DNA from: Chloroflexota bacterium
GTDB lineage: Bacteria > Chloroflexota > Anaerolineae > UBA4142
NCBI GenBank assembly: GCA_016219275.1
Contig: JACRBM010000056.1
Span: forward strand, 104,852 to 168,851
DNA length: 64,000 bases
Reading direction: 5' to 3'
Below the pieces are notes generated by a model that saw only the letters and a program-made list of their open reading frames with translations, was not told the DNA's origin and ran no database searches. A program made the translations under genes and the position numbers. Positions 19,017 through 61,131 of this stretch are shown one piece after another (the first letter of the stretch is position 1; every line of letters begins with the position of its first letter).

Positions 19017-19071
19017 GGACAAGTTTCCAACTTGTCCACCCAATGATAAAGCAAATTGGAAATTTGCTTTA
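19017..19071. repeat. Two TTGGAAA/TTTCCAA-centred palindromes between trpE and trpG
   Basis: GGACAAG-TTTCCAA-CTTGTCC (19017-19037) and TAAAGCAAATT-GGA-AATTTGCTTTA (19047-19071) are perfect hairpins. The second contains the trpE stop codon at 19069-19071. They share the central heptamer with palindromes at 38151-38165, 56751-56790 and 58280-58306. Confidence 0.75.
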
Positions 19072-20550
19072 CGATTCCGCGATTTCGATGGCACGCGTGA
19101 GCGCGCGCGCCTTGTTTTCACATTCGCGATGCTCGCCGAGCGGATCGGAATCCGCGACGATGCCAGCGCCGGCTTGGACGAACGCGTGCTTGCCGCGCTG
19201 AACGATGGTGCGAATCGTGATGCAAAAATCCATATTGCTCTTGCCCGCAACCGGAAAACCGAAATAACCAACCGCCCCGGCGTACGGTCCGCGTCGTGTC
19301 CCTTCAAGGTCTTCGATGATTTCCATCGCGCGAACCTTGGGCGCGCCCGAAACCGTCCCCGCCGGGAAGGTCGCACGAAGCAGATCGAACGCGCTGAACT
19401 CGCGGCGCAACTTGCCGACGACGCGCGAGACGATGTGCATCACGTGCGAGAATCGCTCGACGGTCATGTACTGCGGAACCTGCACCGAGCCGTACTCGCA
19501 CACGCGACCCAGGTCGTTGCGACCCAGGTCTACCAACATCACGTGCTCGGCGCGTTCCTTGGGATCGTTGCACAACTCAGTTTCGAGCCGCGCGTCCTCG
19601 GCTTCGTCCTTGCCGCGGCGACGTGTGCCCGCAATCGGATTCAGTTGCGCGATATCGTCTTCGAGCCGCACGAGCACTTCGGGCGACGACCCGATGAATT
19701 GCAGATCGCGGAAATCGAGCAAGAACATGTACGGCGATGGATTCAATCGGCGCAGGGCGCGATAAATCGAAAACGCGTCCGCTTCAGTTTCGCGCGAAAA
19801 ACGTTGCGACAAGACAACCTGGAAAATATCGCCCGCCGCGATGTGTTCTTGCGCGCGGCGCACCATCGCGGCGAATTGGTCGGGTGTGACGTTCGATTGC
19901 AACGCGTGTCCATTGGGCGCGGGCGCAGTATCCGATGTTGGAACCGGGCGATTCAACCGCGCGACGATATTCTCGATACGCGCGACGGCGTCGTCGTACG
20001 CGGCGCGCGCGCTCCCGCGCTCCGCGACATGCGCGTTCGCGATGACGAGCGTACGATGCTTGACCTGATCGAACGCGATGAGCGTGTCGGTCAGCAAGAA
20101 AATCGCGTCCGGCAGATCGAGTTCATCGCGCGCGGTGCGCGGCAAGCGTTCGATGTAGCGCACGATGTCGTACGACAGGAATCCGACCGCGCCGCCGAAA
20201 AAGCGCGGTAGACCTGGGATTGTGACCGCGTGATACGGCGCGAGAAAATCGCGCAACGCGTTCAGCGGGTCGTCGGCATCGAACGTCGTTTCCGCGCGCG
20301 TGTGATCGCGCAGCGTGACGCGCCCCTCGCGTACGGTGATGACGCGCGACGGATTGACGCCGATGAACGAATAGCGCGCCAGTTGTTCGCCACCCTCGAC
20401 CGATTCGAGCAAGAACGAGGCGTACTCATCGCGTAGTTTAAGGTAGACCGACACGGGTGTTTCCATGTCCGCGTTGAGTTCGCGATAAACCGGGATGAGA
20501 TTGCCCTGGCTGGCGAGCGATTCGAATTCGCTAAAGCTGGGATATGTCAT
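19069..20550 (-). CDS. trpE: Anthranilate synthase component I
   Basis: First committed step of tryptophan synthesis: chorismate plus ammonia to anthranilate. The 493-residue protein carries the tryptophan feedback motif LLES in [20 protein letters not shown]. Its chorismate-binding domain has [55 protein letters not shown], and a C-terminal end rich in [15 protein letters not shown] 20550 is chosen because GGAGGT lies 5 bases upstream; the frame open to 20826 runs through the T-box leader and terminator. Regulation is visible: a tryptophan T-box precedes it, and feedback inhibition is expected. Confidence 0.97.
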
Positions 20551-20573
20551 TGCGACCTCCTTTTGAATTTCTG

Positions 20574-21034
20574 AAAAATAAAAACCTCTCGTCCGTTGCG
20601 CGTATAGATACGCAACAAGGGACGAGAGGTTGCTTGGCTCCCGTGGTGCCACCCTGATCGAGACTGGCGAGACATTGAGTTGTATGTCTCGATAAAATAA
20701 AACGTGCGTTTCGTGATGAAACGAAACGCACGAGCCAGTCTCACTCTGTGGAAACGCATTTAGAAGTTGGAGGTTAGAAGTTGGAGGTCGGGACTTGGAT
20801 TCTCGATGTTTCAATCCAATTTCCAAACTCCAACTTCTAATCTCTAATTTCTAAAATCAATTTCCTCTGCCACGATAACGGGGGCGATTTCCGTCCACGC
20901 ATACTGGGCGTTTGCCGTTCAGCGGGAGACTCATCGGTCCATTCGCCGTTTTCGGAAATATCAATCTCACACCAACTCGATTGACTCTCTGAATTTCGTC
21001 TGACGAGTACTCGTCCGAATCATTGTCTTTCAGT
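20574..21034 (-). promoter_or_regulatory. Tryptophan T-box riboswitch leader of the trp operon
   Basis: Read on the minus strand the leader has the T-box sequence AGGGTGGCACCACGG (20655-20641), which pairs with the uncharged tRNA acceptor end. A terminator with arms around ACCTCTCGTCC and GGACGAGAGGT follows, with a T-run (about 20627-20574). Upstream are stem I elements including GGACGAGTA and AGAGAGTC, and a specifier region GGCGAATGGACCG whose TGG (20941-20939) is the tryptophan codon. Uncharged tRNA-Trp should stabilise the antiterminator and turn on trpEGDCFBA. Between stem I and the antiterminator sits a 95-base heptad hairpin. The trpS leader shares the same blocks. Confidence 0.9.
20760..20854. 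repeat. Heptad-repeat hairpin inside the trpE T-box leader
   Basis: On the plus strand there are six 7-base units (TTAGAAG, TTGGAGG, repeated, TCGGGAC, TTGGATT), an 11-base loop 20802-20812, and six units (AATCCAA, TTTCCAA, ACTCCAA, CTTCTAA, TCTCTAA, TTTCTAA). The two halves are partly complementary. It occupies the position where T-box stem II would lie. The trpS leader has the same 6-loop(11)-6 layout at 30568-30662. Confidence 0.85.
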
Positions 21035-21040
21035 GGCAAA

Positions 21041-21069
21041 CATATACCACAAAAAAACGCGGCTGTCAA
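21041..21069 (-). promoter_or_regulatory. Promoter of the trp operon
   Basis: On the minus strand a perfect TTGACA (21069-21064), 17 bases, then TATATG (21046-21041). The -35 box overlaps the stop codon of the desaturase gene, so the operon has its own promoter directly after that gene. The start would be near 21034, giving a leader of about 480 bases. Confidence 0.7.
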
Positions 21070-22073
21070 TTCGCGCGCGCGCGATATTGCCGCAACACGT
21101 CAAAGCCGACGAGCCGTTGTGCTTGCTCGTCCCACAAATGCAGATGTACGCATTTGAGACTCTCTAGGAAAGTGAGCGGCGGAATTTGAAATGCCGGATT
21201 ATTCTTGTGACACTTGGGCAAAAGATAATTCGGCACACGCGGGCTAAGGTGGTGGATGTGATGAAAGCCAATGTTTCCGCTGAACCATTGCAGAATCGCG
21301 GGGAGTTTGTAGAACGAACTGCCTTGCATTCCCGCGCGCACAAAACTCCACGCGTCCTGACGATCCCAGTAGACGTTCTCGAATTGGTGTTGAACGTAGA
21401 ACATCCACAACCCAATCGCCGAGGCGACGACCATAATTGGCAGTTGGATAAGCACGTAACGTTCCCAGCCGATCAACATGCTCAACCCCAAAGCAATGGC
21501 GAACACCGCAAGGTTGGTATAGAGCACGCTCAGGCGTTCGCGTTTGCCGGAGTTGGGTGTGGCAAAACGATGTAAGACCAGGAACGTAAACGATGCCCCA
21601 ACCGTGAACAAGAACAGAGGATTACGCATGACCCGGTATCCCACGCGCTTGTACCATGGGGCGGTAAGATACTCGCGCACGGTCATCGTTGGTACATCGC
21701 CGGTGCCGCGTTTGTCGAGATTGCCGGCGGTCGCGTGGTGAATCGCGTGGTCGTGTCGCCAACGATAGAACGGCGTGAAGGTGATGAATCCCAGCAGTAC
21801 GCCGAGTGATTCGTTCGCGCGGTTGGATTTGAAGAACGCTCCGTGACAGCAATCGTGGAAGATGATAAACGCGCGGATGAGCAGACCTGCGGCGGGAATC
21901 GCGAGAAGCAGGGTCAGCCAGTACGCGATGTCCACACTCCAGATCATCACTGCCCACAGCGCGAGATACGGCGCGAGCGTGTTGACGATCTGCCAAAGAC
22001 TGCGACCCAGTTGCGGTTCCGTGTAGGGCGCGATCATTTCTTTCCAATTTAGTTTTTCGAACTCCACTTGCAT
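21066..22073 (-). CDS. Membrane fatty acid desaturase
   Basis: A di-iron, membrane-bound acyl desaturase that introduces a double bond into fatty acyl chains. The 335-residue protein has the three histidine boxes in order: HDCCH at residues 73-77, HDHAIHH at 107-113, and HHIHH in GFHHIHHLSPRVPNY near residue 270, with QHQFENVYW before the third. Four hydrophobic segments flank them. The box spacing fits the omega-6/delta-12-like bacterial group; regiospecificity cannot be read. ATG 22073 is chosen because GGAGT lies 4 bases upstream; the frame is open to 22148. Confidence 0.88.
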   Translation of the reverse strand: MQVEFEKLNWKEMIAPYTEPQLGRSLWQIVNTLAPYLALWAVMIWSVDIAYWLTLLLAIPAAGLLIRAFIIFHDCCHGAFFKSNRANESLGVLLGFITFTPFYRWRHDHAIHHATAGNLDKRGTGDVPTMTVREYLTAPWYKRVGYRVMRNPLFLFTVGASFTFLVLHRFATPNSGKRERLSVLYTNLAVFAIALGLSMLIGWERYVLIQLPIMVVASAIGLWMFYVQHQFENVYWDRQDAWSFVRAGMQGSSFYKLPAILQWFSGNIGFHHIHHLSPRVPNYLLPKCHKNNPAFQIPPLTFLESLKCVHLHLWDEQAQRLVGFDVLRQYRARAN

Positions 22074-22196
22074 ACTCACTCCTATCGCTTGGCTTGAGAG
22101 CAACTCCCAAACCGATGGTTTTTGGTTAACCCGATGCGCCTTCATCATACTCGCGCATTATGCCAAGCGCAAGTGCCCACGCGCGTGCAAGCGTGC

Positions 22197-22225
22197 TTGA
22201 CGTATGGCACTACTAGCCTTATAAT
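22197..22225 (+). promoter_or_regulatory. Strong promoter for the 22.3-30.3 kb gene cluster
   Basis: TTGACG (22197-22202), exactly 17 bases, then a perfect TATAAT (22220-22225), 43 bases upstream of the first start codon. Confidence 0.75.
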
Positions 22226-22267
22226 GTTGACGAAGTTGAGTTTTTTCTCTTGGCGGAATGTTTTAAC

Positions 22268-22540
22268 ATGGCTTGGGATGCCGCGCGCCGCGAGCAGGTA
22301 GTAGACGACCTAGTAAAACGCATTGGCGAAGCGGACATGGTTGCGCCGGCGCTTTTATTCTTGACGATCCACCAACCATGGGCATTCGTCGGCGCGCAGT
22401 TGGTGTGGTTCGCCCAGCCCTTGCTGCGTCTTGGTTTGAACGATGCGGAGGTGCGGCATCTCGCGCAGTTGCTCGAAGATCGCACGGGCGTTCAGATGCT
22501 GATAGACCGACTCGAAACGCTATCCTCCACGTCGCGCTGA
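22268..22540 (+). CDS. Small protein of unknown function
   Basis: About 90 residues, mixed helical: an N-terminal amphipathic part (AWDAARREQVVDDLVKRI), then PALLFLTIHQPWAFVGAQLVWFAQPLL, which could be a single membrane-associated helix, and a C-terminal acidic helix DRTGVQMLIDRLETL. I do not recognise a family with certainty. The frame opens at TTG 22250, but ATG 22268 with GGCGGA 10 bases upstream seems better. It is the first gene behind a strong promoter and ends 23 bases before the DUF6754-type gene, so it is probably part of that operon. Confidence 0.6.
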   Translation: MAWDAARREQVVDDLVKRIGEADMVAPALLFLTIHQPWAFVGAQLVWFAQPLLRLGLNDAEVRHLAQLLEDRTGVQMLIDRLETLSSTSR

Positions 22541-22563
22541 CGCGCGTTCGCGGGAGCGATTGA

Positions 22564-23385
22564 ATGGAAACACTGCTCAGTCTTTTGCAATCCACGATTG
22601 GAACAGACCAAGCGCGCCAACTCGTTCTGTTCCTTCTTTTTCTCCCCCTCTTTGCTTTCGCATATTGGGCGGTCAAACGCGGCATGGTCATTTCGCTGCG
22701 CGCGATTCCGGGCTATGCCGCGCTCACGCAATTGCTCACTCAGTCTGCCGAGACCGGTCGCCCGGTGCATTTGTCGCTTGGCATCAGCGGCATCGCGGAC
22801 GCGTTCACCGCGGATACGATGGCGGGCTTGACGACGCTCGAATACGTCGCCGAGCGCGGCGTCATCAGCGAAGCGCCGCCGATTGTCACCGTCGCGAATC
22901 CGACCGCGCTCCCCGCGGCGCAGGATGTGTTGCGCCGTACCTATACGCGGCACGGTTACGCCGAAGAGTACGATCCGGCGCGCGCGCGTTTTATCGCGCC
23001 GAACGGCGCGCTCAACAGCGCGACGCCCGTCGCGCCCGGCAGTGGTTTTGCCTACGCCGCCGGCGCGATGCAAACGCTCACCCAACACAAGTTGACCGCG
23101 AATGTCATGCTCGGACGATTCGGCGACGAGTTTCTTTTGCTCGGCGAAACCGGCGCGCAACGCGGTTTGCCGCAGGTCGGCGGCACGAGTGCAGAGCGCG
23201 TGCTGCCGTTCGTGCAATCTACAGTAGATAACCCCTTGCTCGGCGAAGAGATTTACGCCAGCGGCGCGTATCTCCTTAAAAAACCGGCGCACCTCAGCAG
23301 TCTGCTCGCGCAAGATATTGCGCGCGGGTTGTTGGTTCTCGGGATCATCGTCGCGGTGCTGATGAAAACGATAGGATTGTTCTAA
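22564..23385 (+). CDS. DUF6754-type membrane protein
   Basis: A 273-residue protein with one N-terminal membrane helix (about 20-38) and one C-terminal helix (about 252-268). The soluble middle contains GRPVHLSLGISGIADAFTADTMAGL, VTVANPTALPAAQDVLRRTY and GRFGDEFLLLGETGAQRG, a pattern I associate with the DUF6754 family of Chloroflexota; the function is not known. The following gene begins 2 bases after its stop, so they are translationally linked. Confidence 0.7.
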   Translation: METLLSLLQSTIGTDQARQLVLFLLFLPLFAFAYWAVKRGMVISLRAIPGYAALTQLLTQSAETGRPVHLSLGISGIADAFTADTMAGLTTLEYVAERGVISEAPPIVTVANPTALPAAQDVLRRTYTRHGYAEEYDPARARFIAPNGALNSATPVAPGSGFAYAAGAMQTLTQHKLTANVMLGRFGDEFLLLGETGAQRGLPQVGGTSAERVLPFVQSTVDNPLLGEEIYASGAYLLKKPAHLSSLLAQDIARGLLVLGIIVAVLMKTIGLF

Positions 23386-23387
23386 CG

Positions 23388-23987
23388 ATGAAGTGGCTGG
23401 CGACCGCATTTGCGATTAGCGTGGGCTTGATCGTTCTGCTCGATTATTTTTTCGACCACCCCTTGTTGAACGGTTTGGGCGAAGTGTTTCGCGAGTGGGC
23501 GATTGTGCTTACCGCGTTCGCGTTGTTGCTCGGTCTGTTCAATCTGTTTTTCGTTCACGCGCTTCGCATCGTGCGCCGCAACGAGCCGGGCGTGTTCTAC
23601 AGCATCGTCGTCGTCGTGACGACGCTCGGCGTGCTTCTGCTTGGTTTGTGGTTTGATATTCCGAGCAATGAGATGAACTGGATTTTCAACAACCTTTATC
23701 TCCCACTCCAAAGCGCGTTTTTTGCGTTAACCGCGTTCTTCCTCGCGACCGCCGCGTATCGCGCGTTACGCGCGCGTAATTTCGAAACGACCTTGATGTT
23801 GCTCGCCGCGGTCGTCGTGTTTCTTGGTCAATTGCCGTTCCTGACCGTGCTGGAAGATTTCCGCGAATGGGTGTTGCGCGTGCCTAGTCAAGCCGGCGTC
23901 CGCGGCATTCTCCTCGGCGTTGCCATTGGCACGATTGCCACCGCGTTGCGTTTACTCGTCGGCATGGATCGCCCGTACAGCGAATAA
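23388..23987 (+). CDS. Five- to six-helix membrane protein, unknown function
   Basis: A 199-residue, strongly hydrophobic protein with segments at about 4-22, 40-60, 72-90, 105-122, 135-153 and 168-186. No catalytic motif is visible. The ATG lies 2 bases after the previous stop, and the zinc-ribbon gene starts 6 bases downstream, so it belongs to a compact operon. Confidence 0.65.
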   Translation: MKWLATAFAISVGLIVLLDYFFDHPLLNGLGEVFREWAIVLTAFALLLGLFNLFFVHALRIVRRNEPGVFYSIVVVVTTLGVLLLGLWFDIPSNEMNWIFNNLYLPLQSAFFALTAFFLATAAYRALRARNFETTLMLLAAVVVFLGQLPFLTVLEDFREWVLRVPSQAGVRGILLGVAIGTIATALRLLVGMDRPYSE

Positions 23988-23993
23988 ATTACG

Positions 23994-26267
23994 ATGGTAT
24001 ATTGTTCTCACTGCGGAACTCAAAATCGAGATGGTAGTAAATTCTGCAATCACTGCGGCGCGCGCCTGGTTCCGCAGTCGGGTTTAGTTTGCCCGATGTG
24101 CAGTACGCCGAATCCGGTCGAGAACGTATTTTGCTTCAAGTGCAACGCGCGGCTTGTGCCGATGACCGCGCCGCCTCCCGAAGAAAAACCGGCGAGTCCG
24201 CCGCCGATCAAAGGTTTATCGCTCCCCGCGAAATTGGAACCAGCGGCGGAAGAACCGGTCACGCCGGAAGAAACCGATGCGTCTGCCGCGATTCCACCCA
24301 GCGAACCGGCGCTGGCAAATTCGGATGTGCCGGATTGGTTGGCGCATCCATCCGTGACGCCAGCCCCGACGAACGAAGCGCCCGCGCCGACCAGCGATGA
24401 GCCAGATTGGCTCGCGCGTTTGCGCGCCTCTGCGCCGCCGGCGGAAGAAACCACCGATGCCAGTCCGGCTCAGGTTTCCAGTTGGCTTGAATCGGCGGAA
24501 GCGCCGCCGGCAGAAACACCCGCGCCGCCCAGCGAATCTGGGTCGAGCGCGTCCGTACCCGCGTGGCTCGACAATTTGCGCGCGGAAGAACCTGCGGCAG
24601 CGGAACAACCGAGCGCGTCCACTCCGCCAACCGAAAATGAAGAGCCGAGTTGGATGAGCCAACTGCGCGCCTCGGCGGCGCAAGCACCTGTGCCAAGCGA
24701 ACCGGACGCGGGCGTACCCGATTGGCTCCAGTCAGCCGGCGCAACGCCCTCCGTGCCCGCTGAAGCGCCCGCGATCCCGTCCGCGTCCATCGAAGAACCG
24801 GATTGGCTCAAGCCAATGGCTGGCGAAATTCCGGTGGCACCCTCCGTGGATGAAGACGTGCCGGATTGGTTGCGGTCGGTCGCGCCATCTGCGCCGACTG
24901 CGCCACCGCCATCACCGCCGATGCCACCGATGCCACCGATGCCACCGACACCAACCGAACAAGAAGAATTGTCGGACGAAGAATGGTTGCGGCGCATTCA
25001 ATCCGGTGAAGGAATTCAGATTCCTTTGCCGTCCGGGTTGCCGCGTGCGCCCACACAACCATTCGCCGAAGAAGAAATTCCAGACTGGTTGCGTTTTGCC
25101 GCCCCGTCTGCCAAGCCCGAACCGATCTTGGGCGAAACGCCGGCGCGTCCGATTGAGCCAGCCCAGCAAGTGCCCGAGTGGATTGCCGTACTCAAACCGG
25201 CGGATGCCGCACCCGGTTTCGACCTGGGCGAAGGCGAGCCAATCGAAACCGTTGGACCGATTGCAGGATTGCGCGGCGTGTTGCCGCTCGCTAACGCGAT
25301 TGCCGAGCCGCACACGTTGAGCGCCGCGCAGACCGCATCGCCCTTGCCGCGGCGGAGCGGCGCGCACCTCTTCGAATCTATTCTCGCCACACCGGTCGCA
25401 CCGACCACCGTGCCGGTCGTCAAAAAAGCGCGCGCGTTCTCGGTCTCGCGCTGGTTGGTTTATTTAACCTTGCTCGTCGCGTTGTTCGTGCCGCTCGTCC
25501 TGCCGCCGGATTTGTCGAGCGCGACGCTACCGATCACGCGCACGCCCGCGCGTGAATTTTTCGAAACGCTCGACAAACTTGCGACCCCGAACGCGACGGT
25601 GGTGCTCGCGTTCGAGTACGAGCCGGGCATGGCGGGCGAAATGGATTTACAGGCGCGCGCGCTCGCGCGTTATCTTGCCGGCAAACGCGTCAAGGTCGCG
25701 GCGCTCTCGACGTTCGAGACCGGTCCACAGATCGCACAACGTGTGCTCGATTCTGTCGTGAGCAAGGGTGCGTACGAGTACGGCACGCAGATGGTCAACC
25801 TGGGTTATTTCCCTGGCAACGAAGTCGCGCTCGCGAATCTCGCGACGGCGAAATTTTCGGCGGACAACCTGGATTGGCGCGATCGCAAGTCGTTGCGTCC
25901 GTTCCTCGAAACATCGCGCATTACGAGTTTGAATGATGTCGCGCTCGTGATCGTGCTTGCCGGCAACGACGACGCGCTCAAGATGTGGATGGAGCAAGTG
26001 CAACCCCGCGGCGTCAAAATCGCGGCGGGTGTCAGCGCGGGCGTCGAGCCGCGCGCGCGCGCGTATCGGTCCGCGAATCAAATCGTCGCGATGATGGCGG
26101 GGTTGACCGGCGCGGCGCAATTCGAGATTTTGACCGGCAAGCCGGGTGCGGCGGTCGTTAGCGCGGGCGCGCAAAACGCGGCGGTCGTTTTGTTGGTGCT
26201 CGTCATCGTCGTCGGGAATATCATGTTTTTGTTCTCACGCGCGCGGACGCGGAGCGAAAAGAAATGA
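23994..26267 (+). CDS. Zinc-ribbon membrane protein with PDWL repeats
   Basis: A 757-residue modular protein. Residues 1-55 hold two zinc ribbons (CSHCGTQ...FCNHCGARL and CPMCSTP...FCFKCNARL). Residues about 60-400 are Pro/Ala/Glu-rich and disordered, containing about ten short repeats of the form E/V-P-D-W-L (PDWLAHP, PDWLARL, PDWLQSA, PDWLKPM, PDWLRSV, PDWLRFA, and variants PAWLDNL, PSWMSQL, PEWIAVL). A membrane helix at about 485-503 (WLVYLTLLVALFVPLVL) is followed by a soluble domain and a C-terminal helix (about 730-750) with a basic tail. The repeats may be short linear motifs for a partner protein (inference). The gene overlaps the next by 4 bases. Confidence 0.7.
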   Translation: MVYCSHCGTQNRDGSKFCNHCGARLVPQSGLVCPMCSTPNPVENVFCFKCNARLVPMTAPPPEEKPASPPPIKGLSLPAKLEPAAEEPVTPEETDASAAIPPSEPALANSDVPDWLAHPSVTPAPTNEAPAPTSDEPDWLARLRASAPPAEETTDASPAQVSSWLESAEAPPAETPAPPSESGSSASVPAWLDNLRAEEPAAAEQPSASTPPTENEEPSWMSQLRASAAQAPVPSEPDAGVPDWLQSAGATPSVPAEAPAIPSASIEEPDWLKPMAGEIPVAPSVDEDVPDWLRSVAPSAPTAPPPSPPMPPMPPMPPTPTEQEELSDEEWLRRIQSGEGIQIPLPSGLPRAPTQPFAEEEIPDWLRFAAPSAKPEPILGETPARPIEPAQQVPEWIAVLKPADAAPGFDLGEGEPIETVGPIAGLRGVLPLANAIAEPHTLSAAQTASPLPRRSGAHLFESILATPVAPTTVPVVKKARAFSVSRWLVYLTLLVALFVPLVLPPDLSSATLPITRTPAREFFETLDKLATPNATVVLAFEYEPGMAGEMDLQARALARYLAGKRVKVAALSTFETGPQIAQRVLDSVVSKGAYEYGTQMVNLGYFPGNEVALANLATAKFSADNLDWRDRKSLRPFLETSRITSLNDVALVIVLAGNDDALKMWMEQVQPRGVKIAAGVSAGVEPRARAYRSANQIVAMMAGLTGAAQFEILTGKPGAAVVSAGAQNAAVVLLVLVIVVGNIMFLFSRARTRSEKK

Positions 26268-26908
26268 GTGATCCCATCGGCGCGTTGGTCGGCGTAATTC
26301 TGACCTTGCTGGTGTTTAGTTATTTGCTGGGCGACACGCCGTTGTTCCGTTTGGCGCAAGCGCTTTTCGTCGGCGTGGCGGCGGGCTATGCCGCGACGGT
26401 CGCGATCTATCTTGTGCTGTGGCTCAAGTTGTTCAAGCCGCTCTCCGAAGATCCGAACGGAAAATGGATTTACTTTTTCCCGCTCGCGCTTGGTATTTTA
26501 CTCTTTGCGAAATTACGCGCGACCTGGGCGCCGATTGGAAATCTGCCGATTGCGTTTCTGTTCGGCGTGGGCGGCGCGCTCGCGATTGGCGGCGCGCTTG
26601 GCGGCACGCTCGTCCCGCAACTCAGCGCGACGATTGTTTCGCTTGCGCCTTCGCAAGGTCTCGAGACGCTTGTCAACAACGCGTTCCTCGTGATTGGCAC
26701 GATAGGCGCGTTCCTCTCGTTCCGTTTCATCGTGCCAGCGAAAACCTCCGGGTTGCGCGCGTTCGATACCGTAGCACGTGGTTGGGGACGCGTCGGACGT
26801 TGGTTCATCTTTGTTGCGTTCGGCGCGATTTTCGCCGGGATCGCCGTGTCACGTCTAGCGATTCTGATTGATCGTGTTTCCTTTTTGCTCATGCTCGGCG
26901 CGCGCTAA
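26264..26908 (+). CDS. Hydrophobic membrane protein, unknown function
   Basis: A 214-residue protein with about six membrane segments (near 8-26, 32-54, 70-82, 92-112, 136-152 and 176-200). It starts at an ATGA overlap with the zinc-ribbon gene, so the two are coupled and may interact in the membrane. No known family motif is visible. A heptad repeat separates it from the MutL-like gene. Confidence 0.65.
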   Translation: MSDPIGALVGVILTLLVFSYLLGDTPLFRLAQALFVGVAAGYAATVAIYLVLWLKLFKPLSEDPNGKWIYFFPLALGILLFAKLRATWAPIGNLPIAFLFGVGGALAIGGALGGTLVPQLSATIVSLAPSQGLETLVNNAFLVIGTIGAFLSFRFIVPAKTSGLRAFDTVARGWGRVGRWFIFVAFGAIFAGIAVSRLAILIDRVSFLLMLGAR

Positions 26909-26922
26909 TTGAACCGTTTTGC

Positions 26923-26964
26923 AATCTCAAATCTCAAATCTCAAATCCTAAATCCTAAATTCCA
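26923..26964. repeat. Single-arm heptad array before the MutL-like gene
   Basis: Six exact 7-base units: AATCTCA three times, AATCCTA twice, AATTCCA. The array ends 2 bases before the ATG at 26967. No complementary arm is seen nearby. It displaces any Shine-Dalgarno sequence, since no AG-rich motif precedes the start. Confidence 0.8.
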
Positions 26965-26966
26965 AA

Positions 26967-28775
26967 ATGCCTGACTCGAAACTCGAATCGTTGCTCGTGG
27001 CGGATTGTGGCAGTGTCAACACCAAAGTCGGTTTGGTAGACTGGGTGGATGGCATCTACCGCTTTATCGGCGCGGGCACCGCCGCCACCACCAGCGACGA
27101 CATTACCGTCGGGTTGCGCCGCGCGGTGCAACAGGTCGAAGCGCGCACCGGGCGTCGTTTGTTGACGGACGATGGAAATATCATCGCGCCCGAACGCATC
27201 GGCGCGCAAGGTGTGGACGCGGTCGTCGCACTGACGAGCGCGCCGCCGCCGCTGCGCGTCGCAATCGTCGGCTTGAGCCGCGATGTCAGCGTCGCCAGCG
27301 CGCTGGACGCGATTCACGGCACGTACGCGACGGTGGTCGCGATCCTCGCGCTCGACGAGACGGGGCGGCGTTGGTTGCCAGTGGATTGGGATCAGGATGT
27401 TGTGACGGATCAGACCGGCATTCGCGTCGCGATGGCGCGGCGCAAGAGCGGCGAATCCACACCCGATCCTGCTGTCATCGCGGCAGAGGCGCTCGCGCAT
27501 TCCAAACCGGATGTGATCGTGCTGGTCGGCGGCGTGGATGGCGGCGCGACGAACAGCTTGTTCGAAATTACCAACTTGATCGCGTCCATTGTCGCTTCGC
27601 GCGAGGAGAGCGCGCGTCCGGTGATTATTTTCGCCGGCAATCGCGAGGTGCGTCCGCAGATCGCGCAACGGCTCGGCGATCTCACCGAGCTGCGCGTGGT
27701 GGACAATGTGCGTCCGACGATGGAACGCGCCGACCCGGCGGCGCTGCAAGCCGCGCTCGAATCGTTGTACGCCGAACGCAAAGTGGCATACCAGCCGGGT
27801 ATGGACGTGCTGTTGGGGATGACGCCCATCAACGTCGTTTCCACCGCGCGTGCGTTCGAGAACGTGGTGCGCTTTGTCGCGCGCTTGTTCGATTTGAACG
27901 TGCTCGGCGCGGACATCGGTAGCAACACGACGACGCTTGTCGTCGCGCGGCGCGAGGCGTACTCGCGCGTTGTGCGCGCCGACCTGGGTGTGGGACAAAA
28001 TATCGAGCGCGTGATCGCGGTGGGCGGCGTCGCGGCATTGCTCGATTGGTTGCCAATGGAGTTGACCGAAGACGACGCGTTGACGCGCTGTCTCAACCGC
28101 GCGGCGCACCCGCGTTCGATTCCGGTCACGCGCGAAGAAGCGCGCCTTGCTCAAGCCGCGGGACGCGTGGCGCTCATGTCCGCCGCGCGCGCGAGCAATG
28201 TGGACGTCAACGATCTCGATTTGATTTTGCTCACCGGCGGTTTGCTGGCAAACAACACGAACCTGGGCGCGATGGCGTTGCTCGCGCTCGACGCGTTGCA
28301 ACCCAGCGGCGTGTTTACACTCGCGGTGGATACCTTCGGGCTTGCGCCGGCGTTTGGCGCGCTCGCGGCGGTCAACGCCGAAGCCGCCGCGATGGTGCTC
28401 GAACGCGATGGCTTTGTGACGCTCGGCACGGTCATCGCGCCGTTGTCGAATCTGCGCGAAGGGCAAGTGGATCTGAACATCAAGATAAAACCGCAAGACG
28501 GCGGCGTGATGAATTTGGAAGTGCATCACGGTAGTCTGGAAATCGTGCCGCTGGCGCCGGGACAAAAAGCTCAGCTCGAGGTGCGCCCCGCGGTGGGTGT
28601 GAGTCTGGGGCGCGGACGACGCGGCGTGTTGAAAGCCGAAGTGGAAGGTGGCGCGCTCGGATTGATTATTGATGCGCGCGGGCGTCCCATCGCGCTGCCG
28701 GAGGATCCGGAAAAGCGGCGCACGAAAATTCAACAGTGGTACTGGGACATTGGCGGCGAGGTGGCGTATGGCTAA
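26967..28775 (+). CDS. Glutamate-mutase-L-like (MutL) ATPase
   Basis: A 602-residue protein of the GlmL/MutL family (actin-like ATPase fold). In clostridia this family accompanies coenzyme-B12-dependent glutamate mutase and is thought to act as a reactivating chaperone. The phosphate-1 motif VADCGSVNTKVGLVD is at residues 10-24, a second one, LGADIGSNTTTLVV, is near 315, and LILLTGG near 420. The duplicated actin-like halves are clear. No mutase S or E subunit genes are present, so the client here is unknown. The stop overlaps the next ATG by 8 bases. Confidence 0.8.
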   Translation: MPDSKLESLLVADCGSVNTKVGLVDWVDGIYRFIGAGTAATTSDDITVGLRRAVQQVEARTGRRLLTDDGNIIAPERIGAQGVDAVVALTSAPPPLRVAIVGLSRDVSVASALDAIHGTYATVVAILALDETGRRWLPVDWDQDVVTDQTGIRVAMARRKSGESTPDPAVIAAEALAHSKPDVIVLVGGVDGGATNSLFEITNLIASIVASREESARPVIIFAGNREVRPQIAQRLGDLTELRVVDNVRPTMERADPAALQAALESLYAERKVAYQPGMDVLLGMTPINVVSTARAFENVVRFVARLFDLNVLGADIGSNTTTLVVARREAYSRVVRADLGVGQNIERVIAVGGVAALLDWLPMELTEDDALTRCLNRAAHPRSIPVTREEARLAQAAGRVALMSAARASNVDVNDLDLILLTGGLLANNTNLGAMALLALDALQPSGVFTLAVDTFGLAPAFGALAAVNAEAAAMVLERDGFVTLGTVIAPLSNLREGQVDLNIKIKPQDGGVMNLEVHHGSLEIVPLAPGQKAQLEVRPAVGVSLGRGRRGVLKAEVEGGALGLIIDARGRPIALPEDPEKRRTKIQQWYWDIGGEVAYG

Positions 28776-29841
28776 TCGTCGTCTGCCTCCATTGACACAA
28801 ACGCGCGTCTTGACGCTCGCAAAAATTCGCCGCGAACGGGTTTTACCGGTGAACGGCGAAGTTCTCGTAACGATGGGCAGTCGCGTTGGGGCGCTCGACG
28901 TAGTGGCGCGCGCGGCGTCCGTCGGATTTTTGCGACCGGTCCCGCTCGCGCGGTACATGCACACGACCGAGACGACCTTGCCCAGTTTGATGAAAAAGCA
29001 AGTCGGCGACGATATTGTCGCGCGCGATGAAATCGCGTCCAAGCCGGAATTTTTCGGCGCGGCGCGCCGGGTGTATCGCGCGCCGGGGAACGGGCGCATC
29101 ACCGCATTGCAGGGCTCGTGGCTGACGATGGATTTGATGGACGCGCCGTTTGAATTGCGCGGGCATTATCGCGGGGCGATTGTGAACATTGTGCCGCGGC
29201 GCGGCGTGGTGATCGAAGCGAACGGCGCATTGGCGGAAGGTACGTGGGGCACGGGCAGCGAAGCGTATGGCATCCTCCGCAAAGCGGTGGACGCGCCGGG
29301 CAGCGTTTTGACCGACGAGCAGATTGACGTTTCCGCGCGCGGCGCGATTCTCCTCGCGGGCGCTGGGATCACCGAGACCGCGTTGCAACGCGCGGCGCAG
29401 GAACAAGCGGCGGGCTTGATTATCGGCAGCATCTCGGCTAAAATCAAATCACTGCTCGTGACCTTGTCTCTGCCTGTGATGGTGACTGAAGGGTTCGGCG
29501 AGATTCCGATGGCGTTGCCGATTTTCGAAATGCTCGCGCGTCACAGCGGCGAAGAAGCGTTTCTGGATGCCAAGATGCCCAACCCCGAAATTTTCATTCC
29601 CGCGTTGTCGGCGGCGGTGTCTGGTGAAACCGCACAGGTGCCTGCCACCCTAAGTTGCGAGATTGGCGCAACCGTTCGGATTACGAGCGGTCCCTTGATC
29701 GGGCAGGTCGGCAAAATCGCGGATGCGCCGGCATTGCCCCAGGTTTTGGAGAGTGGTATTTCCGTGTGGGGCGCGGAGGTCGAATTGCTGACCGGCAGTC
29801 GCGCGTTTGTGCCGTGGGAAAATCTTGAACTGATTGGTTGA
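28768..29841 (+). CDS. Partner protein of the MutL-like ATPase, unknown function
   Basis: A 357-residue protein starting at ATG 28768 inside the end of the previous gene (8-base overlap). The middle region, with HYRGAIVNIVPRRGVVIEANGAL and LLAGAGITETALQRAAQEQAAGLIIGSIS, suggests alpha/beta domains. The C-terminal end has a KOW-like beta-barrel pattern (GATVRITSGPLIGQVGKI ... VPWENLELIG). A GEVLVTMGSRVGALDVVA segment near the start resembles biotinyl-like barrel-sandwich folds. I do not assign a function; tight coupling suggests a complex with the ATPase. Confidence 0.65.
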   Translation: MANRRLPPLTQTRVLTLAKIRRERVLPVNGEVLVTMGSRVGALDVVARAASVGFLRPVPLARYMHTTETTLPSLMKKQVGDDIVARDEIASKPEFFGAARRVYRAPGNGRITALQGSWLTMDLMDAPFELRGHYRGAIVNIVPRRGVVIEANGALAEGTWGTGSEAYGILRKAVDAPGSVLTDEQIDVSARGAILLAGAGITETALQRAAQEQAAGLIIGSISAKIKSLLVTLSLPVMVTEGFGEIPMALPIFEMLARHSGEEAFLDAKMPNPEIFIPALSAAVSGETAQVPATLSCEIGATVRITSGPLIGQVGKIADAPALPQVLESGISVWGAEVELLTGSRAFVPWENLELIG

Positions 29842-29879
29842 GGACTGGGTCGTAACTCGTCACGAAAGGAGACTGAACG

Positions 29880-30332
29880 ATGTCAGAAATTACCCCAGCG
29901 GGCGGCGGTGGTTCGAGTCGCCAAGTGTTCATCATTCTCGCGATTGGTCTGGCGGGTTTGTTGATTTTGGGTTTGATCGGTCTGGGTGGTGTGTTCCTGT
30001 TCAATCAGATCGCGCGCCCCGCCGCAACGGCGACGCCGACGCGTGTTACGCCGACGGTCACACGAACCGTGGCAATTGCCGCGATTCCGACCGCGACCGA
30101 AGCGGCGACCGCAACCCCGGTTGTTCCTACGGTTGCCGCTCCTGCGACGGTTGCCGAACCGACTGCCGCCGGTAGCGTGACGGCGGCGACTACGACGACA
30201 CCCGGCACGGGCACACCGGCTGGCTCGTTACCGGAATCCGGCTTGGGGGAAGATTTGTTGCTCCTGGCGGGTGGCGTTGTGTTGGTGCTTGTGATCTTTG
30301 CCGCGCGACGCGCGCGGGTGAGCGCGGCGTAA
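29880..30332 (+). CDS. Thr/Ala/Pro-rich membrane protein with LPESG end
   Basis: A 150-residue protein: short Gly/Ser N-terminus, a membrane helix (about 16-42), a low-complexity extracytoplasmic stretch of TATPT/TAAT repeats (about 48-115), then LPESG, a second hydrophobic helix and an Arg-rich tail. The last three elements in order mimic a sortase sorting signal, but no sortase gene is in the window and the N-terminal helix is a poor signal peptide. RBS AAAGGAGAC precedes the ATG. It is the last gene of the cluster. Confidence 0.6.
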   Translation: MSEITPAGGGGSSRQVFIILAIGLAGLLILGLIGLGGVFLFNQIARPAATATPTRVTPTVTRTVAIAAIPTATEAATATPVVPTVAAPATVAEPTAAGSVTAATTTTPGTGTPAGSLPESGLGEDLLLLAGGVVLVLVIFAARRARVSAA

Positions 30333-30338
30333 ACGCGT

Positions 30339-30367
30339 TTGACATTTGTGCGCGCGCATGATATAGT
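30339..30367 (+). promoter_or_regulatory. Promoter of the trpS T-box leader
   Basis: A perfect TTGACA (30339-30344), 17 bases, then TATAGT (30362-30367). It starts 6 bases after the preceding stop codon, mirroring the arrangement at the trpE leader. Confidence 0.7.
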
Positions 30368-30373
30368 CGCGCA

Positions 30374-30806
30374 ACTTATTCAATCGAACAATGTGGATCC
30401 GGACGAGTAGCCGTCGTGTTCCGTTCAGCGAGTCGCACAGCGCGTGGTGCAAGTGCGATGCGGCAAGCGGCGGCGAATGGACCGGGGAGTTGCAAGCTGA
30501 ACCGCGCGTAGGCGCCTAGTAGGTGATGCCGGAGACGCCCCCGTTATCGTGGCGAAGGAAATTGATGTTTGAAGATAGAAATTAGAAATGGGAAGTTGGA
30601 GATTGGATGAAACCATTCAGAATCCAATTTCCATCGTCCAATTTCCAACCTCCAATTTTCAAACTGCGTTTCCAGAGTGAGACTGGCATATCCCTATCGT
30701 CTGCACGATGGGGATTTTTGCTGGGCTAACCAGGGTGGCACCACGGGCACGCTTTGCGGCTCGTCCCCGATTGCGCGGTACCTTGCGCGGGGCGAGCGTT
30801 TTTATT
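30374..30806 (+). promoter_or_regulatory. Tryptophan T-box riboswitch leader of trpS
   Basis: The leader has the T-box AGGGTGGCACCACGGG (30732-30747), then a GC-rich terminator with arms CTCGTCCCCG and CGGGGCGAG and a TTTTTATTTT tail ending near 30806. Stem I has GGACGAGTAG and a specifier region GGCGAATGGACCG with TGG at 30478-30480, the tryptophan codon. A block CCCCCGTTATCGTGGC before, and GCGTTTCC-AGAGTGAGACTGGC after, the heptad hairpin are shared nearly base for base with the trpE leader, so the two leaders are duplicates. Uncharged tRNA-Trp should allow read-through into trpS. Confidence 0.9.
30568..30662. repeat. Heptad-repeat hairpin inside the trpS T-box leader
   Basis: Six 7-base units (TTTGAAG, ATAGAAA, TTAGAAA, TGGGAAG, TTGGAGA, TTGGATG), an 11-base loop 30610-30620, then six units (AATCCAA, TTTCCAT, CGTCCAA, TTTCCAA, CCTCCAA, TTTTCAA). 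The halves are imperfect complements. Number of units, loop length and location match the trpE leader, while many bases differ. Confidence 0.85.
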
Positions 30807-30858: not shown

Positions 30859-31863
30859 ATGAAAAAACGAATCTTGACGGGCGACCGACCAACCGGTCTG
30901 TTGCACCTGGGTCACTATGTCGGCACGTTGGCGAACCGCGTGCGCTTGCAAGACGAGTACGAAGTGTTCTTGATCGTCGCGGATTATCACGCGCTTACGC
31001 GGCACACGGAAAAAGACCACGTCATCGCGACGAAACAATTCACGCGCGACCTCGTGCTCGATTATCTTTCGGTCGGGATTGATCCGAACAAGGCGACGAT
31101 CTACGTCCAGTCCGATGTGCCGAGTGTGTGCGAGCTGCACTTGCTCTTTTCGATGCTGACGACCGTGCCGCGCCTCGAACGCGTGCCGTCGCTCAAAGAA
31201 GTGATGGACGCCGAGCACATCGAAAACCCGTCGTATGGCTTGCTCGGTTACCCCGTATTGCAAGCGGCGGATATTTTGCACGTGCGCGCGCATCTCGTAC
31301 CCGTCGGCAAAGACCAGGAATCGCACATCGAAGTCACGCGCGAGATCGCGCGCCGCTTCAACTTTTTGTACGGCGGCGACGTGTTTCCAGAACCGGACGC
31401 GCTGATCGGCGAAGTGCCGACCTTGATGGGCACCGATGGCAAGGGCAAAATGTCCAAGAGCATCGGCAACGCGATTTTTCTCGCGGACGATGCGAAAACC
31501 GTGGATCAAAAAGTGCGCGGGATGTACACCGATCCCACGCGCGTGCGCGCAGACATTCCCGGCAATCCCGAAGGCAATCCGGTGTTTCAGTATCACGACG
31601 CGTTCAACCCGGACAAATCCGAGGTTGAGGACTTGAAAGAACGGTATCGCCAGGGCAAGGTCGGCGATGTCGAGGTGAAGAAAAAATTAGCGAAAGCGCT
31701 CAACGCGTTCCTCGATCCGATCCGGGAACGGCGCGCGTTTTACGCGAACAATCCCAATCAGGTGGACGACATTCTCGCGGCGGGCGTCGCCAAGGTGCGC
31801 CCCATTTCGCAAGAGACGGTTGATCTCGCGCGCGAAGCGATGGGGCTGGGTCGCATGATGTAA
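30859..31863 (+). CDS. trpS: Tryptophanyl-tRNA synthetase
   Basis: Charges tRNA-Trp. The 334-residue class I synthetase has the HIGH-type motif in [10 protein letters not shown] (residues 11-20), the KMSKS loop in [11 protein letters not shown], and Rossmann-fold segments [11 protein letters not shown] and [16 protein letters not shown] 30859 is chosen because GGGGG lies 5 bases upstream; the TTG at 30847 adds only four residues. Its expression should be controlled by the T-box leader, which also measures tRNA-Trp charging for the trp operon. Confidence 0.97.
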
Positions 31864-32037: not shown

Positions 32038-32295
32038 CTAGGAATCTAGTTTGCCCCTTGACTAGAAGATCGGATTGTTTTATAGTTCAACACAAATTCG
32101 CGCGCTGACAACGCGATGGGATTGTTTTTTGACGGGAGCAATGACGCTCAGCTTGTGTTTTTGGACGCCTTGAGCTGAGTCGAGCAAATGGCGTAACCGA
32201 CCGTGACCACGCATCTAGCGCGGAGCGGTTTTTTTATTTGCGTCCGGCTTGATTTGATCCAAAAGGGTGATACCTATCCTCTGACGACCTTGTCA

Positions 32296-32335
32296 CAAAG
32301 GAGGTGATGCCACAACAAAGGAGGTGATGCCACAG
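32296..32335 (+). repeat. 20-bp tandem duplication containing a perfect anti-16S sequence
   Basis: Two adjacent copies of a 20-base unit, CAAAGGAGGTGATGCCACAA/G. Each contains AAAGGAGGTGAT, fully complementary to the usual 3' end of 16S rRNA. They lie about 95 bases upstream of the protease start, which has its own Shine-Dalgarno. Confidence 0.8.
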
Positions 32336-32428
32336 CATAGTGAGCAACTAGCGTTTGTGCCCGAGTCTTGGAATGGCTTTGGGTTTGCGTCGTTTGCAAA
32401 ACACAACACAAGGAGAGGAGTAAGGCAC

Positions 32429-40850: not shown

Positions 40851-40912
40851 TACTCATCAACCTCCAAAATTTTGCGGCAGGATTATACCACAATCCCGCG
40901 TGACGACAAGTT

Positions 40913-41026
40913 GGCGAATAGCGAATGGCAAATGGCAAATTCGGAAATCGGTCGCGGACGCGCAACTCATCCGACTTCCAACTTCCGACTTCCAATTTCC
41001 AACCGCCAATTTCCAAATTCCAATTT
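40913..41026. repeat. Heptad-repeat element upstream of the DUF6391 gene
   Basis: The left arm has four exact 7-base units, GGCGAAT, AGCGAAT, GGCAAAT, GGCAAAT (40913-40940). The right arm has eight units, mostly CCAATTT/CCGACTT/CCAACTT (40971-41026). The right array ends 6 bases before a TACAAT box (41033-41038) that probably drives the next gene, so the repeat occupies the -35 region. Confidence 0.82.
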
Positions 41027-47743: not shown

Positions 47744-47828
47744 AGAGGGATGAAGGATGAAGAGCACAATTTCCCTCAGTTCCTGTGGTTCCCTTCTTCA
47801 TCCTTCATTCTTCATCCTTCATCCTTCG
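47744..47828. repeat. Heptad-repeat hairpin upstream of kdpD
   Basis: The left arm has AGAGGGA, TGAAGGA, TGAAGAG (47744-47764). The right arm has five exact 7-base units alternating TTCTTCA and TCCTTCA (47794-47828). Arms are complementary. The array ends 7 bases before the kdpD ATG, leaving no Shine-Dalgarno. Confidence 0.8.
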
Positions 47829-47835
47829 ATTGAAT

Positions 47836-61081: not shown

Positions 61082-61127
61082 ACATTGAACACTGAACACT
61101 GGAAACTGAACACTGAATACTGGACAC
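61072..61127. repeat. Heptad array spanning the coxD stop codon
   Basis: Eight exact 7-base units: TGAACAT twice, TGAACAC twice, TGGAAAC, TGAACAC, TGAATAC, TGGACAC. The second TGAACAT supplies the coxD stop codon TGA. A partly complementary left arm (CAGTATTC and CCAGTGTTCAGT, 61037-61068) lies inside the coxD coding end. The array ends 4 bases before the coxE ATG. Confidence 0.85.
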
Positions 61128-61131
61128 TCGA

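What the first reader, a model, noticed from the sequence alone, without database searches (positions are those of the whole stretch)
20574..30806. Two tryptophan T-box leaders contain the same 6-heptad / 11-nt loop / 6-heptad module
Both the trpE leader (minus) and the trpS leader (plus) have a T-box, a GGCGAATGGACCG specifier region with TGG, and shared blocks either side of a 95-base insert (20760-20854 and 30568-30662). The insert is built of 7-base units with exactly six per arm and an 11-base loop in both, although many bases differ. It sits where stem II would be. Geometry kept while sequence drifts suggests either selection on a spacer hairpin or a repeat that mutates in register.
Basis: partly seen in the sequence, partly recalled or inferred. 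Interest (0 to 1): 0.88.

Follow-up and report, generated by a model that had tools for sequence, protein, structure and literature searches.

The report
Swappable repeat-built arms on T-box RNAs
In an uncultured bacterium whose named relatives are Chloroflexota, the three RNA switches (T-boxes) found with the tryptophan codon carry a hairpin built of degenerate 7-letter repeats that also lie all over the genome, and across its bacterial family outer arms of such switches are often repeat hairpins, which have likely been swapped in again and again while the tRNA-reading part stayed put.

Summary
In detail: trpE (20615-21032, minus) and trpS (30385-30771, plus) leaders match Rfam T-box (E 1.1e-16, 1.4e-12; both below the gathering score), each with a 95-nt insert of 6+6 heptads around an 11-nt loop. 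Its placement was misread: stem II lies upstream; the insert stands at the tip of an extra, covarying helix between IIA/B and stem III. A third Trp leader (TrpB-like gene) has it with 7+6 units. The same heptad foldback is dispersed genome-wide, among 73 different heptad consensuses at 111 loci in 864 kb. In 23 copies, arms pair no better than arms of different loci (p=0.86), so the shared geometry reflects repeat structure and shared descent (Trp loops 80% alike), not base-pair selection. Of 18 Trp leaders in the family 8 have a heptad hairpin there; of the 5 in relatives, 3 use another heptad, 2 a related one. Of 102 T-boxes in the family, 44 have period-7 or -8 repeats just before the T-box; period 8 is enriched over spacers (odds ratio 30), period 7 not significantly. 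Within a T-box type the stem III hairpin is kept while its letters differ; another dispersed palindrome sits in stem II or III of five. Best reading: T-box helix tips are permissive sockets for genome-resident foldbacks. Function untested.

The parts
20615..21032 (-). trpE T-box leader (stem I to antiterminator)
   Evidence: RF00230 80.8 bits, E 1.1e-16, model 1-219
20939..20941 (-). specifier codon TGG of the trpE leader
   Evidence: GGCGAATGGACCG
20893..20928 (-). stem II of the trpE leader (present, upstream of the insert; limits approximate)
   Evidence: covariance-model alignment
20873..20894 (-). IIA/B element ACGG...CCCCCGTTATCG (limits approximate)
20861..20865 (-). 5' strand (GGAAA) of the extra helix ('IIC') that carries the insert
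   Evidence: pairs with 20750-20754; the pairs differ but pair in relatives (swapped-ends control); in the MFE fold
20760..20854 (-). 95-nt heptad foldback: 5' arm 20813-20854, loop 20802-20812, 3' arm 20760-20801
20750..20754 (-). 3' strand (TTTCC) of the extra helix
20659..20742 (-). stem III of the trpE leader, separate from the insert (limits approximate)
20645..20655 (-). T-box motif AGGGTGGCACC (UGGC)
20572..20631 (-). terminator hairpin and T run
   Evidence: 94% complementary arms followed by TTTTTATTTTT
19069..20550 (-). trpE
   Evidence: TIGR00564 582.5 bits, above cut-off
30385..30771 (+). trpS T-box leader
   Evidence: RF00230 64.9 bits, E 1.4e-12
30478..30480 (+). specifier codon TGG of the trpS leader
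30557..30561 (+). 5' strand (GGAAA) of the extra helix
30568..30662 (+). 95-nt heptad foldback: 5' arm 30568-30609, loop 30610-30620, 3' arm 30621-30662
30669..30673 (+). 3' strand (TTTCC) of the extra helix
30679..30727 (+). stem III of the trpS leader (limits approximate)
30732..30742 (+). T-box motif AGGGTGGCACC
30859..31863 (+). trpS
   Evidence: TIGR00233 313.6 bits, above cut-off

Best explanation
The 95-base module is one copy of a degenerate 7-base-repeat foldback that occurs all over this genome, standing at the tip of an extra helix in the three Trp T-box leaders found there, and it most likely works as an interchangeable, sequence-neutral extension of that helix that was captured once and then copied between the leaders. 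Shown here: the leaders match the T-box model; the module is dispersed; the extra helix pairs with changed letters in relatives; the module's loop is shared by the three leaders but by none of 20 other copies examined; the trpE and trpS leader bodies are nearest to leaders of other genomes while the module region is nearest to own-genome paralogs (for the TrpB-like leader the body margin is only 0.76 against 0.75). Inferred: exchange between the leaders, perhaps through the nearly invariant blocks on either side (CCCCCGTTATCG and GTGAGACTGGC). More widely, the outer helices of T-boxes in this family (stem II loop, extra helix, stem III) would be permissive sockets: they need to fold back on themselves and not disturb the tRNA-reading stem I or the antiterminator, so genome-resident 7- and 8-nt repeat hairpins and other palindromic repeats would be taken up there repeatedly. 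Any role of the longer stem, such as pausing the polymerase or insulating the antiterminator, is untested.
For: Dispersal: 73 matches of the insert in the own genome at E up to 10, the query itself and matches on both strands included, from 40 scored of 100 candidates; 111 period-7 loci in 864 kb, 55 with an inverted partner against 2.7% of 300 random places, 73 distinct heptad consensuses. Arms of 23 copies do not pair better in their own locus. Loops of the three Trp copies are 80% alike; 0 of 190 pairs among 20 other copies reach that, maximum 0.64; trio against pool at most 0.67. Body against cassette (16 leaders compared): G000 trpE body is nearest to a G010 leader (0.79; own paralogs 0.68, 0.72), its extra-helix region to its own paralogs (0.79, 0.81); the G010 pair has body 0.63, cassette 0.74; three trpE ortholog pairs share 0.27-0.49 of the cassette, 45 trpS ortholog pairs 0.43 on average, maximum 0.80. 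Extra-helix pairs: GGAAA/UUUCC, GAGGA/UCCUC, AAGCA/UGCUU, AAGAA/UUCUU, AGGGA/UCCCU, AGUUG/CAACU; 14 of 20 leaders have a run of 5 or more pairs between their own ends, against 10% of 342 swapped ends. Same tip in relatives: other heptads in G006 (GTTTCAG) and G010 (CAAGTNG, two leaders), related ones in G013 (GATTAGA) and G007; stem II loop in G001 (GGTAAAT). The G006 and G013 heptads are dispersed in their own genomes. Family-wide: 44 of 102 T-boxes have period 7 or 8 in the last 110 nt before the T-box motif; in five genomes period 8 in 11 of 44 T-boxes against 22 of 2036 spacer windows, odds ratio 30. Own stem III arms pair better than arms swapped between genomes within a type: 17.0/11.2, 15.4/7.0, 17.7/10.4, 16.5/10.3, 11.5/7.1 in five groups, 7.2/6.7 in the Thr group. 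Another dispersed palindrome (TGTCATTGCGAG or TGTCATTCTGAG) lies in the stem II loop of four T-boxes and spans the stem III place of one.
Against: Whole-insert identity of the three Trp copies (0.73-0.75) is not special: 26 of 190 pool pairs reach 0.72; single capture rests on the loop and flanks. Two of the five heptad hairpins at this tip in relatives (G007, G013) are of the same RRTTRGA kind, so old common descent is not excluded there. Period 7 just before the T-box is not significantly enriched (4 of 44 against 94 of 2036, p=0.15). T-boxes of one type are related by descent and spacer windows overlap, so the period-8 test overstates independence. Nearest neighbours by stem III are of the same gene in 17 of 43 cases, same genome in only 4 (expected 8.2 and 2.7); median stem III similarity is higher within a gene (0.101) than within a genome (0.094), only the means run the other way; arms swapped between T-boxes of one genome pair poorly (8.4 against 14.1 own). 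So descent also shapes stem III and a genome pool is not the whole story. In G012 the two Trp bodies are nearest to each other (0.83), so no cassette-only exchange shows there. No agent of dispersal was found; one Y1 transposase match only. No transcript or function was tested.
Confidence: 0.65

Rival explanations
1. Functional spacer under selection: the heptad hairpin has a set length and period because it acts as a ruler, pause hairpin or protein-binding array in Trp T-boxes.
For: 6-11-6 in trpE and trpS; period 7 recurs at the same tip in five genomes; period-8 stem III enriched in T-boxes; hairpins kept while sequence differs.
Against: 7+6 units in the third leader; 10 of 18 Trp leaders of the family have a short stem or none there; no locus-specific pairing in the heptad family; the same repeats lie far from any T-box.
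Confidence: 0.16
2. Plain background and descent: spacers in these genomes are rich in short-period repeats and T-boxes simply share in it; nothing exchanges, the Trp trio inherited one insertion when the whole leader was duplicated.
For: Period 7 before the T-box is not significantly enriched; 111 period-7 loci in 864 kb; nearest neighbours by stem III are more often of the same gene than expected; median similarity by gene exceeds that by genome; related heptads at the same tip in G007 and G013.
Against: Period 8 in T-boxes, odds ratio 30; no array in the 60 nt after the T-box motif in 102 leaders; bodies of G000 trpE, trpS and G010 leaders are nearest to leaders of other genomes while cassettes are nearest to own-genome paralogs; mean stem III similarity within genomes exceeds all 2000 label shuffles (upstream 4 of 2000 reach the observed value).
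Confidence: 0.19

Closest known systems
T-box riboswitch (Rfam RF00230), trpE/trpB-like/trpS type
   Same: Stem I with TGG specifier, stem II, IIA/B element, stem III, UGGC T-box, terminator; Chloroflexi trpE and trpB-like T-boxes are already reported (PMC2494555, passages).
   Different: Extra helix between IIA/B and III in most Trp leaders of this family examined, tipped in 8 of 18 by a heptad repeat hairpin; stem III of other types often built of 7- or 8-nt units.
Heptamer repeat arrays of bacteria: (GATAGRA)n of Chloroflexus aurantiacus (PMC6749651), TAACTGA of Beggiatoaceae and cyanobacteria (PMC4679880)
   Same: 7-nt tandem units at many, mostly intergenic sites (passages).
   Different: In the passages seen those are described mainly as direct repeats of one unit; here 73 consensus units occur in 864 kb, about half the loci fold back, and some sit inside riboswitch helices.
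REP/BIME and MITE-like palindromic repeats (recalled as classes)
   Same: Dispersed foldback sequences; a TGTCATT...AATGACA palindrome of that look sits in five T-boxes.
   Different: The heptad foldback has no fixed sequence, ends or length; a Y1 transposase was found once in the genome and its link to the repeats was not examined.

Membership tests
T-box riboswitch (RF00230) | Covariance-model match at or above the gathering score (93 bits) | tested here: not met
   80.8 and 64.9 bits; the full model is matched and the long insert is scored as an insertion. I keep the T-box name because the structural features below are met
T-box riboswitch (RF00230) | Stem I with a specifier codon that fits the downstream gene | tested here: met
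   TGG at 20939-20941 and 30478-30480; trpE and trpS downstream
T-box riboswitch (RF00230) | UGGN T-box and antiterminator followed by an intrinsic terminator | tested here: met
   AGGGTGGCACC, then a 94% complementary hairpin and T run for trpE; read from sequence for trpS
T-box riboswitch (RF00230) | tRNA-dependent readthrough | not testable with these tools
   needs transcription assays
Dispersed heptamer repeats | 7-nt period at many genomic sites beyond chance | tested here: met
   96 arrays in 800 kb, 0 in one shuffle
Dispersed heptamer repeats | Same unit as a described family | tested here: inconclusive
   Units of the Trp inserts (RRTTRGA) differ by eye from GATAGRA and TAACTGA; no systematic comparison
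REP elements moved by RAYT transposases | A Y1/RAYT gene flanked by the repeat | tested here: inconclusive
   one PF01797 match in the genome; its flanks were not examined

The most novel reading that the evidence does not exclude
In this order of Anaerolineae-like Chloroflexota the outer helices of T-box riboswitches are exchangeable cartridges: the tRNA-reading and antiterminator cores descend with the gene, while stem III, the stem II loop and a new extra helix are repeatedly rebuilt from the genome's own pool of 7- and 8-nt foldback repeats, with selection asking only for a hairpin.
Probability: 0.4. Interest if true: 0.78.

Novelty: new variant of a known kind. Interest (0 to 1): 0.6.

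Why it matters
The role of T-box stem III is called unclear in print (PMC6197855, passages). A lineage in which stem III exists in dozens of natural versions with the same fold and different letters would be a ready-made mutant series: it says which part of the switch must be only a hairpin. It would also show dispersed repeats entering the structured part of a riboswitch without, it seems, breaking it, and give a phylogenetic readout of how 7- and 8-nt repeat hairpins arise and spread.

Tried and rejected
Insert in place of stem II: rejected by the covariance-model alignment. Compensatory evolution of the heptad arms: chimera test negative. MFE folds of whole leaders show the insert stacked on GGAAA/TTTCC and a separate stem III, but pair other parts of the leader in ways that do not follow the T-box model, so they are used only for that point. 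Dispersal by a REP-type transposase: one PF01797 match, not followed. Matches to microRNA families are far below their gathering scores and taken as chance. One search was meant to test dispersal of the G010 octad but its coordinates lay in the stem II loop; it showed another dispersed palindrome there; the octad was tested properly (31 matches in G010 with the query itself, 14 in G009, 7 in G012, 5 in G000).

Rows dropped and limits. Of the 21 heptad places printed one with a single arm (L025) was left out. Of 107 family T-box loci 5 lacked the motif I used and were dropped. For some searches I put six leaders that the motif rules had left as 'other' into groups by hand (L143, L194, L193, L183 by likeness; L195, L166 by serS-like ORF starts); Trp leaders were not in those tests. 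T-box types other than Trp are named by specifier-like motifs and ORF starts, not by full annotation. From other families of the class, 27 of 29 fetched, best-scoring T-boxes were examined (0 with period 7-9) out of a much longer list, a choice biased towards short leaders. In the same-order family f2, 30 of 39 matches were fetched; 2 lacked the motif and I set aside 1 with a run of N, leaving 8 of 27 with period 7 or 8. The helix finder chose a different pairing for G005 and for contig CALMZO, and none for G009 and one G003 leader. My gene finder for spacers is home-made and crude, windows overlap. The five contigs sampled for the census were large ones that already held a match, a mild bias.

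Not in print, as far as searched: (open PMC papers only) listed no paper on short-period repeat helices in T-box leaders.
Full report
What was claimed and what is there. The two leaders match the T-box model. With the permissive Rfam scan both match RF00230 from end to end: trpE leader 20615-21032 minus (80.8 bits, E 1.1e-16) and trpS leader 30385-30771 plus (64.9 bits, E 1.4e-12); neither reaches the gathering score of 93 bits, so the default scan reports only a c-di-GMP-II-GAG riboswitch in the window. NCBIfam names the genes trpE and trpS, and trpD and trpC behind trpE. Each leader holds a 95-nt insert of six 7-nt units, an 11-nt loop and six 7-nt units. The insert is not where stem II would be: stem II precedes it, and the model places it between the IIA/B element and stem III.

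The host helix. In relatives the same place holds a stem whose base pairs differ but pair: GGAAA/UUUCC in the three G000 leaders, GAGGA/UCCUC in G001 and G012, AAGCA/UGCUU in G004, AAGAA/UUCUU in G007, AGGGA/UCCCU in G002, G010 and G014, AGUUG/CAACU in G011 (21 leaders examined; no such helix was found in G009 and in one G003 leader, and for G005 and one further leader the search chose another pairing). As a control, 14 of 20 leaders have a run of 5 or more pairs between their own ends, against 10% of 342 swapped ends. I call it IIC. The insert prolongs IIC; folding of both leaders puts the insert on GGAAA/UUUCC as one hairpin beside a separate stem III.

A third leader. The own genome (G000, 6.16 Mb, 107 contigs) has 11 T-box matches. 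A third with TGG, before a TrpB-like gene (NF009057 724 bits) on contig C35, has the insert too, by reading with 7 units in the 5' arm and 6 in the 3' arm. So unit number is not fixed. Among the other eight T-boxes some have other period-7 or period-8 hairpins at stem III (L033, L034, L035).

A dispersed repeat. The trpE insert finds 73 matches in its own genome at E up to 10, itself and both strands included, with 40 of 100 candidates scored. Copies read at 20 of these places are foldbacks of RRTTRGA units with 2 to 9 recognisable units per arm and loops of many sizes. A census of 864 kb (40 sampled stretches and the window) gives 111 period-7 loci, 55 of them with an inverted partner, against 2.7% of 300 random places, with 73 distinct consensus units (AATTCGC, GATTTTC, CAGTGTT, GGTAATT and others). 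At a stricter threshold 800 kb hold 96 period-7, 25 period-8 and 14 period-9 arrays, with none of these periods in one shuffle. Period-7 arrays also occur in samples of the relatives G001, G011, G012, G014 and G017 and once in 100 kb of G010.

Is the hairpin held by selection on pairs? For 23 foldbacks of the RRTTRGA family, the three Trp copies included, the arms of one locus pair no better (mean score 23.7) than arms taken from different loci (24.7; one-sided p 0.86). The arms match because both are made of the same degenerate unit. This speaks against base-pair selection in this family.

Descent of the Trp trio. The loops of the three Trp copies are 80% alike; among 20 other copies no pair of 190 exceeds 0.64 and no trio-to-pool pair of 60 exceeds 0.67. 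Whole-insert identity is not special (0.73-0.75 against a pool mean of 0.67, with 26 of 190 pool pairs at 0.72 or more). Leader bodies (stem I to IIA/B) and IIC cassettes disagree among the 16 leaders compared: the G000 trpE body is nearest to a G010 leader (0.79) and less like its paralogs (0.68, 0.72), yet its cassette is nearest to those paralogs (0.81, 0.79); the trpS body is nearest to a G004 leader (0.80; paralogs 0.68, 0.75); for the TrpB-like leader the margin is slight (0.76 against 0.75); the G010 pair has body 0.63 and cassette 0.74; trpE orthologs (3 pairs) share 0.27-0.49 of the cassette, trpS orthologs (45 pairs) 0.43 on average with a maximum of 0.80. In G012, which has only the short stem, the two bodies are nearest to each other. 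I infer capture of one foldback and copying between Trp leaders of the genome, perhaps through the nearly invariant blocks on either side.

Relatives. Of 18 Trp leaders in the same family, 8 carry a heptad hairpin at the IIC tip: three in G000, one each in G006 (GTTTCAG), G007 (TTRGA type) and G013 (GATTAGA, cut by the contig end), two in G010 (CAAGTNG). The G007 and G013 units fit the RRTTRGA pattern of G000; those of G006 and G010 do not. Ten leaders have no such hairpin, and one of those (G001) has a heptad hairpin (GGTAAAT) in its stem II loop instead (trpE of G000 and trpS of G007 reach 15 of 21 period-7 matches, just under the 0.74 threshold, and were counted by reading). The G006 heptad finds 41 matches in G006, 54 in G013, 1 in G012, 0 in G000; the G013 heptad 102, 89, 77 and 49 in G013, G006, G012 and G000 (in both calls at most 40 candidates per genome were scored). 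So in the three genomes tested (G000, G006, G013) the heptad at the tip is common in its own genome; G007, G010 and G001 were not tested for this.

T-boxes of the family at large. One search lists 107 T-boxes in 14 genomes; 102 have the motif I used. In the 110 nt before the T-box motif 13 have period 7 and 31 have period 8, together 44 of 102; none has either in the 60 nt after it. In the five genomes with sampled spacers, T-boxes have period 8 in 11 of 44 and spacer windows in 22 of 2036 (odds ratio 30, p 1e-11), but period 7 in 4 of 44 and 94 of 2036 (p 0.15). T-boxes of one type share descent, so the p value overstates. Period-8 stem III looks like a T-box trait of this lineage; the heptads alone are not shown to be enriched. 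By type, periodic stem III occurs in 6 of 9 AlaX-type, 11 of 14 Val, 10 of 13 TTC, 9 of 12 ATGGC and 7 of 13 Ser leaders, while 12 of 13 Thr leaders have a short plain stem. In the sister family of the same order 8 of 27 examined have period 7 or 8; of 27 best-scoring T-boxes of other families of the class none has.

Sequence different, fold kept. Within a T-box type, own stem III arms pair better than arms swapped between genomes (AlaX 17.0/11.2, Val 15.4/7.0, TTC 17.7/10.4, ATGGC 16.5/10.3, Ser 11.5/7.1; Thr 7.2/6.7); arms swapped between T-boxes of one genome also pair poorly (8.4 against 14.1 own). Mean stem III word similarity is higher within a genome (0.178) than within a gene type (0.147) or neither (0.109), beyond all 2000 shuffles of genome labels, but the medians run the other way for the first two (0.094, 0.101, 0.079); for the upstream part the gene dominates (0.387, against 0.235 and 0.224) with a slight genome effect (4 of 2000). 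The nearest neighbour by stem III is of the same gene in 17, the same genome in 4 and neither in 22 of 43 cases (expected 8.2, 2.7, 32.1), whereas upstream it is the same gene in 43 of 43. Stem III is thus partly inherited and partly replaced. The G010 octad is dispersed in G010 (31 matches with itself).

A second kind of repeat in the same places. A palindrome TGTCATT...AATGACA of 79-98 nt lies in the stem II loop of four T-boxes (G010 twice, G001, G006; flanks read) and spans the stem III place of one in G006; a query from one of them finds 43 matches in G010 (40 of 326 candidates scored). Helix tips of T-boxes therefore host more than one sort of foldback repeat.

Literature seen. [quoted passage not shown] PMC7778990 (passages): stem layout and conserved purines at stem III. 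PMC2494555 (passages): Chloroflexi T-boxes at ile, trpE and trpB-like genes. PMC6749651 (passages): 22 (GATAGRA)n satellites in Chloroflexus aurantiacus. PMC4679880 (passages): TAACTGA repeats. PMC4692102: search listing and start of abstract. REP/RAYT and MITE biology is recalled.

Named relatives.

Odds. On checking I lowered the main confidence from 0.68 to 0.65 and the novel case from 0.45 to 0.40, because the G007 and G013 heptads are related to those of G000 and because the medians and the same-genome swaps weaken the idea of a genome pool.

Verdict. A T-box with an unusual habit: outer helices often made of foldback repeats that the genome owns. Shown: location, dispersal, independence of the arms, shared loop, discordant body and cassette, enrichment of period 8, different sequence with kept fold. 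Inferred: exchange between leaders and functional neutrality. Not tested: transcription, tRNA response, agent of dispersal.

Noticed in passing
window 32125-32211 (+): c-di-GMP-II-GAG riboswitch (48.5 bits, above gathering score), 112 nt before an ORF (32324-33739) with sub-cut-off similarity to mycosin-type serine proteases.
   Followed up: no
window 26912-26972, 40911-41026, 47787-47833, 61054-61133: Further period-7 arrays with other units (consensus CTCAAAT, ATTTCCA, TTCTTCA, ACACTGA) in the window.
   Followed up: partly
L031 and L036, downstream of the T-box: Short-period TTCCC-rich repeats stand between the T-box and the start codon of serS-like and aspartokinase-like ORFs (names by eye); period 9 scored in L031, in L036 seen by eye only.
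   Followed up: no
L151, L205, L212, L223 (stem II loop), L228 (stem III place): A MITE-like palindrome TGTCATTGCGAG / TGTCATTCTGAG ... AATGACA sits inside five T-boxes of G001, G006 and G010.
   Followed up: partly
G000 contigs C11, C33, C72, C73, C74 (ends); also C40:292420-292620, C46, C53, C77: A TGTCATTCTGAG-type element, 99% identical in eight of nine matches (one of them the query), lies at the ends of at least five contigs of the own genome and may break the assembly.
   Followed up: partly
L032, L146, L149, L162, L165, L170: A T-box type precedes an ORF that reads like an AlaX-type tRNA editing protein in several genomes (naming by eye from the protein start).
   Followed up: no
Thr-type leaders, for example L216, L207, L217: Thr(ACC)-type T-boxes keep a short, non-repetitive stem III in 12 of 13 leaders, in contrast to the other types.
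   Followed up: no
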